Virus record (IMG/VR): IMGVR_UViG_3300007765_000728
Span: 1-20,921 of that record
Length of the DNA stretch: 20,921 nt
Strand: one strand, 5' to 3'
DNA from: a virus
Position 1 is the stretch's first letter, and each line of letters starts with the position of its first letter. Position numbers and translations under genes: made by a program. This document shows positions 7,553 to 20,513 of the stretch, piece by piece. The notes below the pieces were generated by a model that saw only the letters and a program-made list of their open reading frames with translations, had not been told where the DNA came from and did no database searches.

Positions 7553-8575
7553 TCAAGAAATAGCGTATTTGTTTAGATTGCGCTCGAATTCGCTCAAACG
7601 TTTATATATTGAACGCAATTCTGTAATTGTTGTCCAGTTATGCAAGAATAATGCAAACCCACCATGTACTTTCTGGAACGCATTTGACACTTGCACTACT
7701 ACACCTAATAATACAGCACCAGTAAACAAACTTGGACCTACGATTAAGTAAGGCACAATAACCATTGCTTGATCATACATAATCATCCATGTGTCAAAAT
7801 ATCCATAGTGTAAGTACAAACGTTGATAGTTGAAACGTATGCCTGTGAATAAACTTGCTAATGTTTCTGGTTGTGCATAGTTTACTTTGTCATCTTCACC
7901 AAACACTAAATCCTTTCTAAATGCGGCTTCGACACGTTGATTGTTATATTCAAGTCCGGGCAGTTTAATACCTACAAACCATGAAATAACCAACCCGCCT
8001 ATAGATACAAATAATGCTACCCATACAAGTGAGCCAGGAATGTCGCTAAAGAATGGAATAGTAACTGAAGAACTTAACCCCCACAGCACTGGAATAAACG
8101 CAACGAGTGTCATTAACGCCCGCACAACTTGCAATCCCAAACTTTCTACAATTCTAGCAAACCGATTGCAGTCCTCTTGAATACGCTGTGATGCACCTTC
8201 AATTTCTTCTTCAACATTGCGCCAACGCGGAATGTAGTCAAAGGTCATTGCCTCTCGCCAACGGAGTCCGTATATGCGTGTAAACCACCCAGTGAGCACC
8301 GCTAACAGCACATATGGAAATGCTAATACAGCAAATGAGGGATCACCATCACTAAAATATTGTAAGCCTAGTAATTTTTCATAAAATAAAGAAATGCCTT
8401 CACTGGCATTATTTTTATATTCACCAGACTTTTGTAGTAAGTCATAAAATCCACCATACCATGTGTTTATCGCTACTGTTAATTGAACTTGTAACCATAA
8501 CGATATAACTAATAGAGAGCCACCGCCATAAGCCCATAGTGCCCATTTCTTAGTTTTATAAAATGCTTTTATCAT
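7553..8575 (-). CDS. SbmA/BacA-like inner-membrane transporter
   Basis: The product has 340 residues with several hydrophobic helices (about 14-35, 83-102, 147-168, 180-203, 265-300). It has the feel of the SbmA/BacA family: WYGGFYDLLQ near the N-terminus (39-48), RWREAMTFDYIPRWR (about 107-121), NQRVEAAFRKDLV (about 216-228) and FALFLHNWTTITELRSIYKRL near the end. SbmA and BacA use the proton gradient to import peptides, including antimicrobial peptides, and have no ATP-binding domain; none is present here either. Cellular members have about 400 residues, so this copy is shorter, mostly in the N-terminal part. It is the last gene of an operon with a periplasmic thioredoxin and overlaps its upstream neighbour by ATGA. 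Why a phage would carry it is open: nutrient peptide uptake, or changed sensitivity to peptides. Confidence 0.8.
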   Translation of the reverse strand: MIKAFYKTKKWALWAYGGGSLLVISLWLQVQLTVAINTWYGGFYDLLQKSGEYKNNASEGISLFYEKLLGLQYFSDGDPSFAVLAFPYVLLAVLTGWFTRIYGLRWREAMTFDYIPRWRNVEEEIEGASQRIQEDCNRFARIVESLGLQVVRALMTLVAFIPVLWGLSSSVTIPFFSDIPGSLVWVALFVSIGGLVISWFVGIKLPGLEYNNQRVEAAFRKDLVFGEDDKVNYAQPETLASLFTGIRFNYQRLYLHYGYFDTWMIMYDQAMVIVPYLIVGPSLFTGAVLLGVVVQVSNAFQKVHGGFALFLHNWTTITELRSIYKRLSEFERNLNKYAIS

Positions 8576-10450: not shown

Positions 10451-10934
10451 CGGGGTTTGAAAGGAAACGATCTTTTTCTAGGCCATACTTGTCTAATATA
10501 TAGTAATATAAATCTACATATTTTTCATAATGCAGTATTTCGTAATCTCTGCCGCGCCCATCTTGCGATCGTTCTAGCCATGTTTCTGGATTTGCTGATC
10601 CTTTTGACCTGTTAATAGAAGAACATGCCGGAACATGATTTTCCGAATCATTAGCAAACTCTACCCAAAGTTCTTTTGGTAATCCTAACTCACATGCTTC
10701 TTTTAAACTTACAACATGGTCAATGTCAATACCGTCGCATAGTGGATGAACGCCTCGTTCATAGCCTGTATACCAACCATGTGTTGCATCACTTGAGTAG
10801 GATCGAAAGTTAAATTGTTCTCTAACGTTAGTACAACCTTCAACACACGCAACCGCATTAATGCTTGCGTATGTTAGTAAGCCTAATAACCCTAATACTA
10901 ATATAACATTTTTAATAATATTTCTTGTTATCAT
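10443..10934 (-). CDS. Secreted HNH nuclease (DUF1524-like)
   Basis: The product has 163 residues. Residues 1-29 form a signal peptide or signal anchor (VILVLGLLGLLTYASINAVA|C), with an AxA-type cleavage site. The nuclease part contains IDIDHVVSLKEACELG (about 70-85), then FANDSENHVPACSSINRSKGSANPETWL. The D-H, N and N-x-x-K pattern with final P-x-x-W matches the HNH core of DUF1524/GmrSD C-terminal proteins. Six cysteines suggest disulfides in the periplasm. A secreted nuclease could degrade DNA entering from competing phages or DNA outside the cell; this is inference. The ATG overlaps the stop of the SGNH-like gene (ATGA). Confidence 0.8.
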   Translation of the reverse strand: MITRNIIKNVILVLGLLGLLTYASINAVACVEGCTNVREQFNFRSYSSDATHGWYTGYERGVHPLCDGIDIDHVVSLKEACELGLPKELWVEFANDSENHVPACSSINRSKGSANPETWLERSQDGRGRDYEILHYEKYVDLYYYILDKYGLEKDRFLSNPAN

Positions 10935-11722
10935 GAATACATACTTCCATATAAATCTAAATAAGGTACTAACACATTTTTACACCAGTCACAATGACCT
11001 TCATAACTCGGATGCATCCCGTCTTCATAGAGGGTAATATTTTTATCTATAGACCATTGCAGTATGCTTTTTTCTAGAGGTATTACTTTAATATTAGAAT
11101 ATCTATGTAAAAAATCCAATGTTTGTGGGTACATCTCGTCTTTGTATTCTCCATACCAATCCCAACCAAAATATAATATTATTTCTTTGACCGTATTAGA
11201 CCATAAGCCTATATTAACAAGCGTTTCTTGCAAATGATAAATTGTTCGGGTAAGGCAGCCAAATTTCATTTCATAATGAAATCTTTGATTGTTTGCTCTA
11301 ATACTTATTGCTTTCCTGTTAAAAATACTCCATTCTTCTTCAGTATAACTTTTTAGTTTATTGTGATAGAACCACATCCAATCCCAGTCAGGTTTCTTCT
11401 CAACGTCGTCTTCCCCATATTTAAGACCATGAAACTCTACATCTTGATCGTCATTCAATAGATAAAAAAGTCTATCTGGCGCTGTTAACTGCCAAAGTAG
11501 TGTGGTATCTTTATTAATTAAATTTTTTGCATAAAGATTAGATAATCTATGGTGTTGTAAATAATTGTCTCCACCGCCTTGTGAAATATGTTTAATATCT
11601 AAACTATAGGTACCATTTAAATAGTGCACATAGCCGTGCTGTTGAGTTAAACTACATCCTGTTAAACTACATCCTAAAGCAACATATTTGTAAGGCGTTT
11701 CTTCTTTCGTTTCCATACACAT
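10931..11722 (-). CDS. Second SGNH-like protein
   Basis: The product has 263 residues starting at 11722; a second ATG two codons later (11716) is equally possible. ALGCSLTGCSL (about 15-25) is at the block I position but has GCS instead of GDS. ISQGGGDNYLQHHRLSN (about 42-58) fits block II, LLWQLTAPDR (about 75-84) the strand before block III, and YEDGMHPSYEGHCDW near the end gives a good D-x-x-H block V. The overall plan is the same as that of the protein at 2366-3127, though identity is low. The loss of the aspartate in GDS means activity should not be assumed. The gene starts just after the tmRNA, so the two may share the promoter at 11992. Confidence 0.6.
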   Translation of the reverse strand: MCMETKEETPYKYVALGCSLTGCSLTQQHGYVHYLNGTYSLDIKHISQGGGDNYLQHHRLSNLYAKNLINKDTTLLWQLTAPDRLFYLLNDDQDVEFHGLKYGEDDVEKKPDWDWMWFYHNKLKSYTEEEWSIFNRKAISIRANNQRFHYEMKFGCLTRTIYHLQETLVNIGLWSNTVKEIILYFGWDWYGEYKDEMYPQTLDFLHRYSNIKVIPLEKSILQWSIDKNITLYEDGMHPSYEGHCDWCKNVLVPYLDLYGSMYS

Positions 11723-11729
11723 ATTTAGT

Positions 11730-11986
11730 GGGGGCGACTTTGTTAAGAAGGTGTCGCCCCCGAAACCCCCTACGCGACCGCTAATTAGGCGGCTAATGCG
11801 TAATCGTAATAATCGTCATTTGCAATTATATAGTTTGCTGTTTTTTAATATGGAACTGCTCCCATATGTCGTCCATTTATCCTCTTCACCCTGTCGAAAC
11901 TGTGTCACCCCCGTAAAAAATTTGGTGGAGGTGCCGGGCACTGCCCCCGGGTCCAGAATGCGTACTTTCAACTTCATACGACAATC
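11730..11986 (-). ncRNA. ssrA: Permuted two-piece tmRNA (alphaproteobacterial type)
   Basis: Reading the minus strand, the acceptor piece comes first. A T arm with stem CCGGG/CCCGG and loop GGCAGTG leads to CACCTCC-ACCA, with CCA encoded and ending at 11923. A 10-nt intervening segment follows (11922-11913). The coding piece starts with GGGGGTG (11912), which pairs with CACCTCC in a 7-bp acceptor stem whose third pair is G-U, the alanyl-tRNA synthetase identity signal. CAGGGTG after the D-like loop can pair with CATTCTG before the T arm (helix P2). The resume codon is GCA at 11823 and the tag reads ANDDYYDYALAA, ending with TAA at 11785. H5-like CCGC/GCGG surrounds the stop. A 9-bp hairpin or pseudoknot (11761-11753 with 11738-11730) closes the 3' end. 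The ends are predictions. With SmpB, tmRNA frees stalled ribosomes and tags the product for ClpXP/ClpAP. Confidence 0.93.
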
Positions 11987-11991
11987 AAAAT

Positions 11992-11999
11992 TATTTATA
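11992..11999 (-). promoter_or_regulatory. Late promoter TATAAATA of the tmRNA
   Basis: Exact TATAAATA on the minus strand. Six bases later, about position 11986, the tmRNA precursor should start, shortly before its acceptor piece. This implies phage late transcription of the tmRNA. Confidence 0.6.
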
Positions 12000-12011: not shown

Positions 12012-12041
12012 AATAAAGGAATACCTGAGCATTCCTTTATT
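12012..12041 (-). terminator. Hairpin between bL33 and the tmRNA
   Basis: AATAAAGGAAT and ATTCCTTTATT are exact 11-base arms around an 8-nt loop. The first arm overlaps the bL33 stop codon. The stem is AT-rich and the T tract after it is weak, so it may be a partial terminator, an RNA processing site or an mRNA 3' end protector. Confidence 0.5.
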
Positions 12042-12210
12042 TAATTTTCTTTTCTTCAAACCAGACGTGTTTTCTTAAAACTGGATCGTATTTCTTTTTA
12101 CGTAGTTTTTCAGGATTGCGTCCGTTTTTAGTAGTAGTATAATAGTAGCCAGTGCCTTCTGTTGACACTAGTTTAACTATTCTAATTGATTTACTAGTAG
12201 GATAAGACAT
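12037..12210 (-). CDS. rpmG: Ribosomal protein bL33
   Basis: This 57-residue gene is below the length many gene callers report. Its product matches bL33 along its length: [20 protein letters not shown] (8-27), [20 protein letters not shown] (28-47), then [10 protein letters not shown] (48-57). The key words G-T-G-[YH]-[YF]-Y-T-T-T-K-N, P-E-K-L, K-[KF]-[YF]-D-P-V-[LV]-R and H-V-x-[YF]-x-E-x-K-I-K are all present. It has no cysteine pairs, so it is the zinc-independent type. bL33 binds 23S rRNA near the E site of the 50S subunit. Its ATG shares the A of the upstream stop (TAATG), so translation is coupled. Ribosomal proteins are known from phage surveys, bS21 being by far the most frequent; a phage bL33 is much rarer. 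The host version would be replaced or supplemented. Confidence 0.93.
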
Positions 12211-19631: not shown

Positions 19632-20465
19632 TTAATTATTATACATTTCCATAGCACGAATAAAACGTGTCATACCAATGCCACCGCCTACTCTTGGAAA
19701 GAAGTCCATTGCTAAAAAGTCTTCCAACTCTTTTTCAACTCTTTCTCTACCAAACGTATCAAATAGTATATTAGCATAACCGCCGTCACTAATAGTATGG
19801 AACATATGTTTCATTTGTTCTTTATCTGTAGCACGTTCTGCTGATCCAATTGTTTCTTGTCCAGCAATAATAACATCAATCTTTGCCGCAGTTTCGCCAT
19901 CGTCGTTTTGTTTCATGTTCCAAAATGGACTTGTGTAGTTTGGAAAGTTTTTAATCATTGCTACACGGCCATTAAAGTTTTGGCACATTTTTTCTTCATG
20001 CTCGTGTTCTAATTCTTTAACGCCGTAAATATCACACCATTCTAAATAATCTTTAGCAACAATGTTTTCGCCATCGGACCATGTTAAGTAGTCCATAAGT
20101 TCGCGTTCCATCTTCTCTAAATCTAAAATAGTTCCTGGAAACTCAAACTCAAACATTGGAAATATTAGTTCATGTCTACCAGCTACCGGATTTGGCTCTT
20201 GCCTATAGGAGGTGGAAATACAAAAAAACCCCGGAACGTCGGGGCGTGTTAGTAATTCATGTTCGAGCCACATTTGGCCCGTTTGTGGCAGGGGCCATAG
20301 TTGCCCTGCGTAATTATAGGTCGCTATTGTTGTTGGATCTTCGCATGCCGCTAGTATGCTTAATCTATTTTGTGTGTGTACTTCTAAGAATCCTTTAGCC
20401 ATAAAAAAAGACCTTAATAGGTCTGCGGCTTGTGTAAAGTGTTGTGGATTGATAAGTTGTGTCAT
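19632..20465 (-). CDS. Class II aminoacyl-tRNA-synthetase-like protein (AsnA/AsnRS type)
   Basis: I start at the second ATG (20465, MTQLINPQHF) because GGAG lies 8 nt before it, inside what would be the first codons of a start at 20477. The product has 277 residues. Motif 2 is ISTSYRQEPN...RHELIFPMFEFEF (about 83-109), with the arginine and glutamates that bind ATP and the amino acid. KIDVIIAGQETIGSAERATD (about 194-213) is the next core block, and GGGIGMTRFIRAME (about 262-275) is motif 3. No anticodon-binding domain is present, so it should not act as a normal synthetase. The plan matches the asparaginyl-tRNA-synthetase-like asparagine synthetases of archaea, but a tRNA-free ligase such as an EpmA-like protein modifier is also possible. 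Late promoter 49 nt upstream. Confidence 0.75.
   Translation of the reverse strand: MTQLINPQHFTQAADLLRSFFMAKGFLEVHTQNRLSILAACEDPTTIATYNYAGQLWPLPQTGQMWLEHELLTRPDVPGFFCISTSYRQEPNPVAGRHELIFPMFEFEFPGTILDLEKMERELMDYLTWSDGENIVAKDYLEWCDIYGVKELEHEHEEKMCQNFNGRVAMIKNFPNYTSPFWNMKQNDDGETAAKIDVIIAGQETIGSAERATDKEQMKHMFHTISDGGYANILFDTFGRERVEKELEDFLAMDFFPRVGGGIGMTRFIRAMEMYNN
20222..20244 (-). terminator. Terminator-like sequence inside the synthetase-like gene
   Basis: On the minus strand CCCCG, a 6-nt loop, CGGGG, then seven Ts. It lies about 230 nt after the start codon, within the codons for PDVPGFF. It has the shape of an intrinsic terminator, but with a 5-bp stem it may be only partly active. Confidence 0.4.
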
Positions 20466-20513
20466 TGTTTTCTCCATTCAAAATTTTTTTAGGCCTGTTG
20501 CCTAAACTGTTTC

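What the first reader, a model, noticed from the sequence alone, without database searches (positions are those of the whole stretch)
11730..11986. A phage-encoded, circularly permuted two-piece tmRNA under a phage late promoter
All core parts are visible: acceptor stem with G3-U70, T arm with the alphaproteobacterial loop GGCAGTG, encoded CCA, a very short 10-nt intervening segment, P2 pairing, and the tag ANDDYYDYALAA with stop. The upstream TATAAATA puts it under late phage control. The phage could keep ribosome rescue active, or change the tag, when host RNA is degraded. The permuted type also points to the host group. tmRNA genes are known in some large phages; a permuted one next to bL33 and clpS is, to my knowledge, not a described arrangement.
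Basis: partly seen in the sequence, partly recalled or inferred. Interest (0 to 1): 0.85.

Follow-up and report, generated by a model that had tools for sequence, protein, structure and literature searches.

The report
Phage split tmRNA with altered elbow
A large virus of bacteria carries its own two-part ribosome-rescue RNA; such genes were already known in phages, but this one has a tRNA "elbow" of one bacterial group in the body of a closely related phage RNA, which makes the fit between that elbow and its partner protein testable.

Summary
A permuted (two-piece) tmRNA gene lies on the minus strand at 11985-11727: RF04321 121.8 bits, RF01849 83.7 bits; ARAGORN tag ANDDYYDYALAA. The carrier is a Gp23-type jumbo phage: five further contigs, up to 201,690 bases, hold the same tmRNA DNA. 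TATAAATA is a real gene-start motif of this phage (19 of 31 sites within 60 nt of a start; random 3%) and sits 8 nt before the RNA, but L126 and L127 lack it.

The kind is not new: phage two-piece tmRNAs were reported in 2022 (PMC9004378). The RNA itself is unusual. Its nearest relative (L126) is almost identical except at the elbow: 8 of 17 T-arm bases differ against 9 of 172 compared elsewhere, four of the nine in the D loop (p 1.1e-5). The window has an alphaproteobacterial T arm; L126, L127 and L270 have the canonical one. No SmpB was found in 21 related records. I infer refitting to an alphaproteobacterial host's SmpB.

The 10-nt spacer may be a remnant: L127 and L270 hold a small hydrophobic-protein gene there.

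The parts
11992..11999 (-). TATAAATA, T4-type late-promoter motif, 8 nt before the first RF04321 base
   Evidence: motif enriched at gene starts over 200 kb of the same phage
12012..12041 (-). 11-bp A+T-rich hairpin overlapping the end of bL33, before the tmRNA; possible transcript end of the bL33 operon
   Evidence: fold, sequence; nearly the same hairpin in L270
11923..11985 (-). acceptor piece (tRNA 3' half with encoded CCA)
   Evidence: RF04321 from 11983
11934..11950 (-). T arm CCGGG-GGCAGUG-CCCGG, alphaproteobacterial type, unlike relatives L126, L127, L270
11913..11922 (-). intervening segment AAUUUUUUAC, 10 nt; 192 nt with a small protein gene in L127 and L270
11727..11912 (-). coding piece (tRNA 5' half, linker hairpin, tag frame, 3' hairpin)
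   Evidence: RF04321/RF01849; alignment of four relatives
11898..11905 (-). D loop ACACAGUU, lacking the GG found in the D loops of L126, L127, L270
11785..11823 (-). tag reading frame ANDDYYDYALAA and stop
   Evidence: ARAGORN
11730..11761 (-). 3'-terminal hairpin GGGGGCGAC/GUCGCCCCC
   Evidence: fold
12037..12210 (-). bL33 (57 aa), next gene upstream
   Evidence: PF00471 57.1 bits
12742..13041 (-). ClpS adaptor (99 aa), fourth gene upstream
   Evidence: PF02617 94.6 bits; phrog_27368
10931..11722 (-). gene of unknown function, starting 4 nt after the tmRNA
   Evidence: no Pfam or PHROG match

Best explanation
This is a phage gene for a working two-piece tmRNA. Shown: the gene's anatomy, its presence in a Gp23-type jumbo phage lineage, its upkeep in relatives, and the lack of a recognisable SmpB gene in the related records. 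Inferred: late in infection a transcript starts at or next to the acceptor piece; host tRNA-processing enzymes cut out the 10-nt spacer; the two pieces pair, are charged with alanine, bind the host's SmpB, release ribosomes stalled on broken mRNA and tag the product with ...ALAA for host proteases. Inferred with less certainty (about 0.45): the elbow (T arm and D loop), which SmpB binds, was rewritten in this lineage from the canonical to an alphaproteobacterial form, perhaps by a short gene-conversion tract from an alphaproteobacterial tmRNA followed by changes in the D loop, because the phage depends on an alphaproteobacterial SmpB; the rest of the RNA stayed as in its relatives.
For: RF04321 and RF01849 far over cut-off, ARAGORN tag. 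A 273-base core is identical in all 9 loci tested, from 5 IMG/VR contigs. Relatives keep the tag while the sequence drifts: ANDDYYDYALAA, ANDDYYDYAMAA, ANDDYYEYALAA (my reading of L127 and L270); a linker-hairpin pair changed on both sides and kept (columns 48-65). Phage context: Gp23 in 3 of 12 records searched, the window's lineage G002 among them; terminase, portal, sheath. SmpB in 0 of 21 records, control positive in 10 of 14 genomes. Elbow, window against L126: 8 of 17 T-arm bases differ, 0 of 33 just before it, 0 of 18 in the acceptor stem and CCA, 4 of 8 in the D loop (with one inserted L126 base left out), 5 of 113 from there to the tag stop; Fisher 1.1e-5 for T arm against the rest; L126 against L127 p 0.10. 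The 32-base string from GGAC to CCA is exact in 9 genome contigs, whose titles all name alphaproteobacterial taxa. Of 70 permuted tmRNAs from a sample of 249 genomes of one phylum, 58 parsed with a GGC-type T loop. D-T loop contact is required for SmpB binding (review passage, PMC3968760). Late motif.
Against: No expression, processing or charging data. T-loop type varies among phage tmRNAs of one wider set: UUC, GGC and UGC types all occur in the loci, so elbow change may be common and need not mean a new host. The canonical-elbow L282 is called alpha (RF01849), so elbow and Rfam subtype do not go strictly together. L162, L163 and Phosso have GGC-type loops, so the direction of change rests on L126, L127 and L270. 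Host unknown; donor not identified. The late motif is absent in L126 and L127. One pairing helix is weak. The fold predicted pairs the acceptor strand with the 3' hairpin, contrary to the tmRNA model, so its other two covarying pairs are of little weight.
Confidence: 0.72

Rival explanations
1. The RNA is a dominant-negative or retargeting device: it takes host SmpB and stalled ribosomes away from the host tmRNA, or tags proteins so that they go to another protease route, with phage ClpS shifting ClpAP away from tagged proteins.
For: Phage ClpS is the fourth gene upstream. [quoted passage not shown] coli (passage in PMC11915505). That ClpS lowers ClpA action on ssrA-tagged substrates is recalled, not tested.
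Against: The tag frame is intact, ends in ALAA and is kept in relatives, as expected for normal tagging.
Confidence: 0.15
2. The gene is a passenger: a captured tmRNA with no role, kept by chance.
For: No expression evidence; a permuted tmRNA was not found in 5 of 6 isolate phages of the wider group (one-piece tmRNA not searched).
Against: Kept tag and kept place next to bL33 in window, L127 and L270, with about 0.7 kb between in L126; RF04321 over cut-off in 14 of 21 clpS-linked records.
Confidence: 0.07
3. The elbow difference is drift or convergence without host meaning.
For: The D loop is not the usual alpha one; T-loop types vary among phage tmRNAs in general; the T-stem change is compensated and could arise stepwise.
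Against: Eight of 17 bases changed while 33 before and 11 after are identical, and the outcome is an exact alphaproteobacterial string.
Confidence: 0.35
4. The T arm is an assembly chimera.
For: Four of the five contigs with the identical core show the same contig coordinates for this region, so they may be reassemblies of related samples.
Against: Same letters in five contigs besides the window, one of them (201,690 bases) with other coordinates.
Confidence: 0.05

Closest known systems
Two-piece tmRNA of marine phages (Methylophilales phage Melnitz, PMC9004378)
   Same: Permuted, phage-encoded, alpha-like T loop GGCAGUA, tag ending ALAA.
   Different: Melnitz has a 142-nt spacer, lies after an early promoter and upstream of the late-transcription coactivator; the window has a 10-nt spacer, a late motif, bL33 beside it and a jumbo-phage background.
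[quoted passage not shown]
   Same: RF04321 and RF01849 over cut-off in the window.
   Different: Near-identical L126 is called beta (RF01850 87.2 bits), so the gene straddles the two subtypes.
tmRNA and SmpB in huge phages (PMC7162821, passages)
   Same: Large phages carrying ribosome-rescue parts.
   Different: No SmpB found here; permuted form. The passages do not say which tmRNA form was seen.
Sinorhizobium phage Phosso permuted tmRNA (PV764938)
   Same: Same wider phage group (capsid 70.5% identical), ClpS, permuted tmRNA.
   Different: 410-nt spacer and GGCGGUA T loop; tmRNA about 48 kb from clpS.

Membership tests
permuted (two-piece) tmRNA | covariance-model match over curated cut-off | tested here: met
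   RF04321 121.8 (47), RF01849 83.7 (50)
permuted (two-piece) tmRNA | acceptor piece precedes coding piece, encoded CCA, G3-U70 | tested here: met
permuted (two-piece) tmRNA | tag frame with resume Ala codon and stop | tested here: met
permuted (two-piece) tmRNA | two mature RNAs, alanine charging, tagging | not testable with these tools
   needs infected cells or purified RNA
permuted (two-piece) tmRNA | partner SmpB | tested here: inconclusive
   none in 21 related records, which may be fragments; the host would have to supply it
alphaproteobacterial subtype (RF01849) | alpha T arm CCGGG-GGCRGUR-CCCGG | tested here: met
alphaproteobacterial subtype (RF01849) | common alpha D loop AAAYAGGA | tested here: not met
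   ACACAGUU
betaproteobacterial subtype (RF01850) | canonical UUCGA T loop | tested here: not met
   window GGCAGUG; relatives L126, L127, L270 have it
T4-type late promoter | TATAAATA just upstream of genes | tested here: met
   19 of 31 sites within 60 nt of a called gene start, first of 56 permutations
T4-type late promoter | phage late sigma factor and coactivator genes | not tested
   not searched for in the 201,690-base record

The most novel reading that the evidence does not exclude
Phage permuted tmRNA genes are modular. The SmpB-binding elbow can be exchanged as a small cassette to match a new host, and the spacer between the two pieces is a slot that carries small protein genes. The window's gene is a derivative that changed its elbow and lost its nested protein gene, leaving a 10-nt spacer.
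Probability: 0.45. Interest if true: 0.78.

Novelty: new variant of a known kind. Interest (0 to 1): 0.55.

Why it matters
The contact between tmRNA and SmpB is at the elbow. A natural pair of near-identical phage RNAs (window and L126) that differ mainly in the elbow is a ready-made test of whether the elbow decides which SmpB, and so which host group, an RNA can work with. It also warns that the Rfam subtype (alpha or beta) should not be read as host evidence for phage tmRNAs. The protein genes nested in the spacers of related tmRNAs would be an unusual way of packing a gene inside an RNA gene.

Tried and rejected
DNA search of isolate phages with the window's tmRNA gave one weak hit in an unannotated record. 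ARAGORN's two overlapping tmRNA calls in L127 were set aside in favour of RF04321, since the spacer there is long. Host identification from the T-arm string was dropped: 9 contigs match and none is tied to the phage. The small spacer protein found nothing among isolate phages (the low-complexity filter may have hidden it); PHROGs and Pfam gave no match over a curated cut-off or below E 0.01. DNA searches with two other phage tmRNAs gave Melnitz and short matches only. One-piece tmRNA (RF00023) was not searched in the isolate phages. Where the relatives' canonical elbow comes from was not pursued.

Full report
CHECK. Rfam finds tmRNA_permuted RF04321 (121.8 bits) at 11983-11785 and alpha_tmRNA RF01849 (83.7 bits) at 12021-11727, both minus strand; ARAGORN finds the permuted form with tag ANDDYYDYALAA. 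Exact parts were read back: acceptor piece 11985-11923 ending in CCA, spacer AAUUUUUUAC, coding piece from 11912, tag frame 11823-11785, 3' hairpin. The acceptor stem GGGGGUG/CACCUCC has seven pairs with G3-U70.

CARRIER. The window is the whole of a 20,921-base IMG/VR virus record. Relatives found through ClpS (21 loci) include four contigs with 100% identical ClpS, one of them 201,690 bases (G002). A 273-base core of the tmRNA region is identical in all 9 loci tested, from 5 contigs; four of these five show the same contig coordinates, so they may not be independent. G002 holds a Gp23-type capsid gene (positive in 3 of 12 records searched), terminase, portal, ribonucleotide reductase and an EF-G-like protein, and sheath and DnaB-like helicase genes. 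Of 17 phage-collection records with a ClpS match, 11 are Pseudomonas phages. The best terminase matches are PA5oct-like Pseudomonas phages (53%), the first-ranked capsid match is Phosso (70.5%). HSP20 and ClpS are neighbours in PA5oct and one gene apart in Phosso; in the window they are 3 kb apart on opposite strands. RF04321 is over cut-off in 14 of 21 clpS-linked records; SmpB is in 0 of 21, though records may be fragments. Of six isolate phages searched, only Phosso has a permuted tmRNA.

PROMOTER. TATAAATA at 11999-11992 lies 8 nt before the first RF04321 base. In 200 kb of G002 with simple gene calls, 19 of 31 TATAAATA sites lie within 60 nt upstream of a gene start against 3.1% of random positions; its reverse complement gives 4 of 31; among 56 permutations of its letters it ranks first. 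So the motif is real in this phage. But in the 100 nt before their tmRNAs L126 and L127 lack it, and L270 has CATAAATA at the same distance as the window, with nearly the same hairpin upstream. Late control is therefore likely here and is not a fixed property of the gene.

ELBOW. Searches show the main new point. L126 has the same acceptor-piece strand, acceptor stem, a 9-nt spacer and nearly the same coding piece, but a canonical T arm (GCGGG-UUCGACU-CCCGC) where the window has CCGGG-GGCAGUG-CCCGG. T arm: 8 of 17 bases differ; other compared segments: 9 of 172, four of these nine in the 8-base D loop (Fisher p 1.1e-5). Left out of that test: the spacer (one base shorter in L126) and the 75 bases from the tag stop on, in which 4 differ. 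Between L126 and L127 the T arm shows no clear excess (4 of 17 against 17 of 172, p 0.10). L127 and L270 are canonical as well, so the simplest order is a change on the window's branch. The window's D loop (ACACAGUU) has lost the GG of these relatives. The 32-base string from GGAC to CCA is exact in 9 genome contigs titled Acetobacteraceae, Rhodospirillales or Ca. Enterousia, all Alphaproteobacteria. Of the 71 permuted tmRNAs in a sample of 249 genomes of the phylum of one of these, I parsed 70 (all but the centre's own; fetched): 58 have a GGC-type T loop, 3 UGCGAUU, 9 did not parse; of the nine, L227 and L237 show a UUCGA-like loop. Eleven loci reached through the T-arm string itself are left out of this count. 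The Rfam subtype differs with the elbow between the sisters: window alpha 83.7, L126 beta 87.2. A review passage (PMC3968760) states that D- and T-loop contacts are required for SmpB binding. With no phage SmpB found, adaptation to an alphaproteobacterial SmpB is the reading I prefer; it is inference.

AGAINST THAT READING. The window's D loop is not the usual alpha form. L162, L163 and Phosso, more distant relatives, also carry GGC-type loops, so both types occur in the wider group. Among the loci the T loop is UUC (L278, L282, L283), GGC (L286, L289, L290, L293, L301) or UGC (L287, L288, L292, L294, L296, L299, L300, L302): elbow change among phage tmRNAs may be frequent. L282, with a canonical loop, scores as alpha RF01849.

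SPACER. The 10-nt spacer may be a remnant. L127 and L270 have 192-nt spacers containing a 47-residue frame (66% identical) ending ...GGIVYLIFF, with AGGAGG shortly before its start. Searching with the pair gave 28 loci. In 18 of the 24 printed the frame lies inside a permuted tmRNA; the four not printed are the other contigs of the L127 group, which have the tmRNA: 22 of 28 in all, and 6 stand alone (L284, L297, L298, L303-L305). The 13 representatives with the nested frame scored over RF04321's cut-off, as did L038, L045 and L090; the four stand-alone loci tested did not. Over the last 30 codons the 13 show mean pN 0.20 against pS 0.66, with pN below pS in 78 of 78 pairs (not independent pairs), so it is a protein under selection. 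At E up to 0.1 neither G002 nor the 62,329-base G005 (window and L126 lineages) has it. Other spacers carry unrelated frames: among the 32 distinct spacers of at least 100 nt from the tmRNA-pattern scan, 15 hold an ATG/GTG frame covering at least 70% (my count, about 8 sequence groups, not tested for selection). Over all 50 distinct spacers of that length 27 do, 13 with a Shine-Dalgarno-like word, against 1.55 expected from shuffles, but the other 18 were reached through ClpS (2) or the frame itself (16). Of 52 distinct bacterial spacers one reaches 100 nt. Melnitz, a cultivated phage, has a 142-nt spacer with an ATG frame, GGAG before it, that runs into the coding piece; the record annotates only the tmRNA there.

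PRINT. PMC9004378 (passages; section 8 whole): phage two-piece tmRNAs, 53 of 133 unique structures, 50 of the 53 from marine or aquatic phages. PMC11915505 (passages): 79 phage tmRNAs in the database, a tRNA gene inside one permuted spacer and a repetitive element in another; no protein frame in a permuted spacer mentioned in the passages seen. PMC10504331 (one passage): no tmRNA in phage Skadi. PMC6375957, PMC7824862, PMC7162821, PMC3968760 (passages). No report of an elbow exchange or of protein genes in tmRNA spacers was seen in the listings; that library lacks most subscription papers.

JUDGEMENT. Real gene, known kind, unusual variant. I rate the two-piece tmRNA identity about 0.95, function in trans-translation about 0.8, the elbow change as host fitting about 0.45.

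Noticed in passing
L127:9126-9269, L270:646-789, L282, L286, L287, L289, L292-L294, L296, L300-L302: A conserved small protein of about 38-50 residues with a hydrophobic C-terminal half (ends GIVYLIFF; probably membrane, not tested) is encoded inside the spacer between the two pieces of phage permuted tmRNAs; mean pN 0.20 against pS 0.66, tmRNA confirmed by RF04321 in 13 of 13 representatives.
   Followed up: partly
L038/L091, L045 group, L090/L100, L017/L043, L033, L076, L116, L112, L144: Other, unrelated small frames cover most of the spacers of phage permuted tmRNAs, as if the spacer were a cargo slot; not tested for selection.
   Followed up: partly
L311 (Melnitz, MZ577097) 1190-1642: An unannotated ATG frame with GGAG upstream starts in the 142-nt tmRNA spacer and runs into the coding piece.
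   Followed up: partly
L303, after position 1475: The stand-alone spacer-protein gene is followed by letters resembling a tmRNA coding piece (GAATTGTCGGATGA), perhaps a relic of a lost tmRNA; no RF04321 match.
   Followed up: no
G002 193911-195980 (L176:13911-15980): The same phage encodes a 689-residue EF-G-like translation factor (phrog_6880).
   Followed up: no
window 19632-20477: Class II (D, K, N) tRNA-synthetase-like protein of 281 residues (PF00152); short for a full synthetase.
   Followed up: no
window 7553-8575: SbmA/BacA-family protein in a phage (PF05992, 408 bits), 95% identical in L126.
   Followed up: no
L301:2271-2477: A manA RNA (RF01745) directly downstream of a phage permuted tmRNA.
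   Followed up: no
L126 tag: Tag ends AMAA instead of ALAA in the nearest relative.
   Followed up: no
L186 (CAKLQF020000008, 'Acinetobacter phage MD-2021a'): The ClpS-bearing stretch of this record holds ilvA, rpiA, argC, clpA and other genes that look bacterial rather than phage.
   Followed up: no
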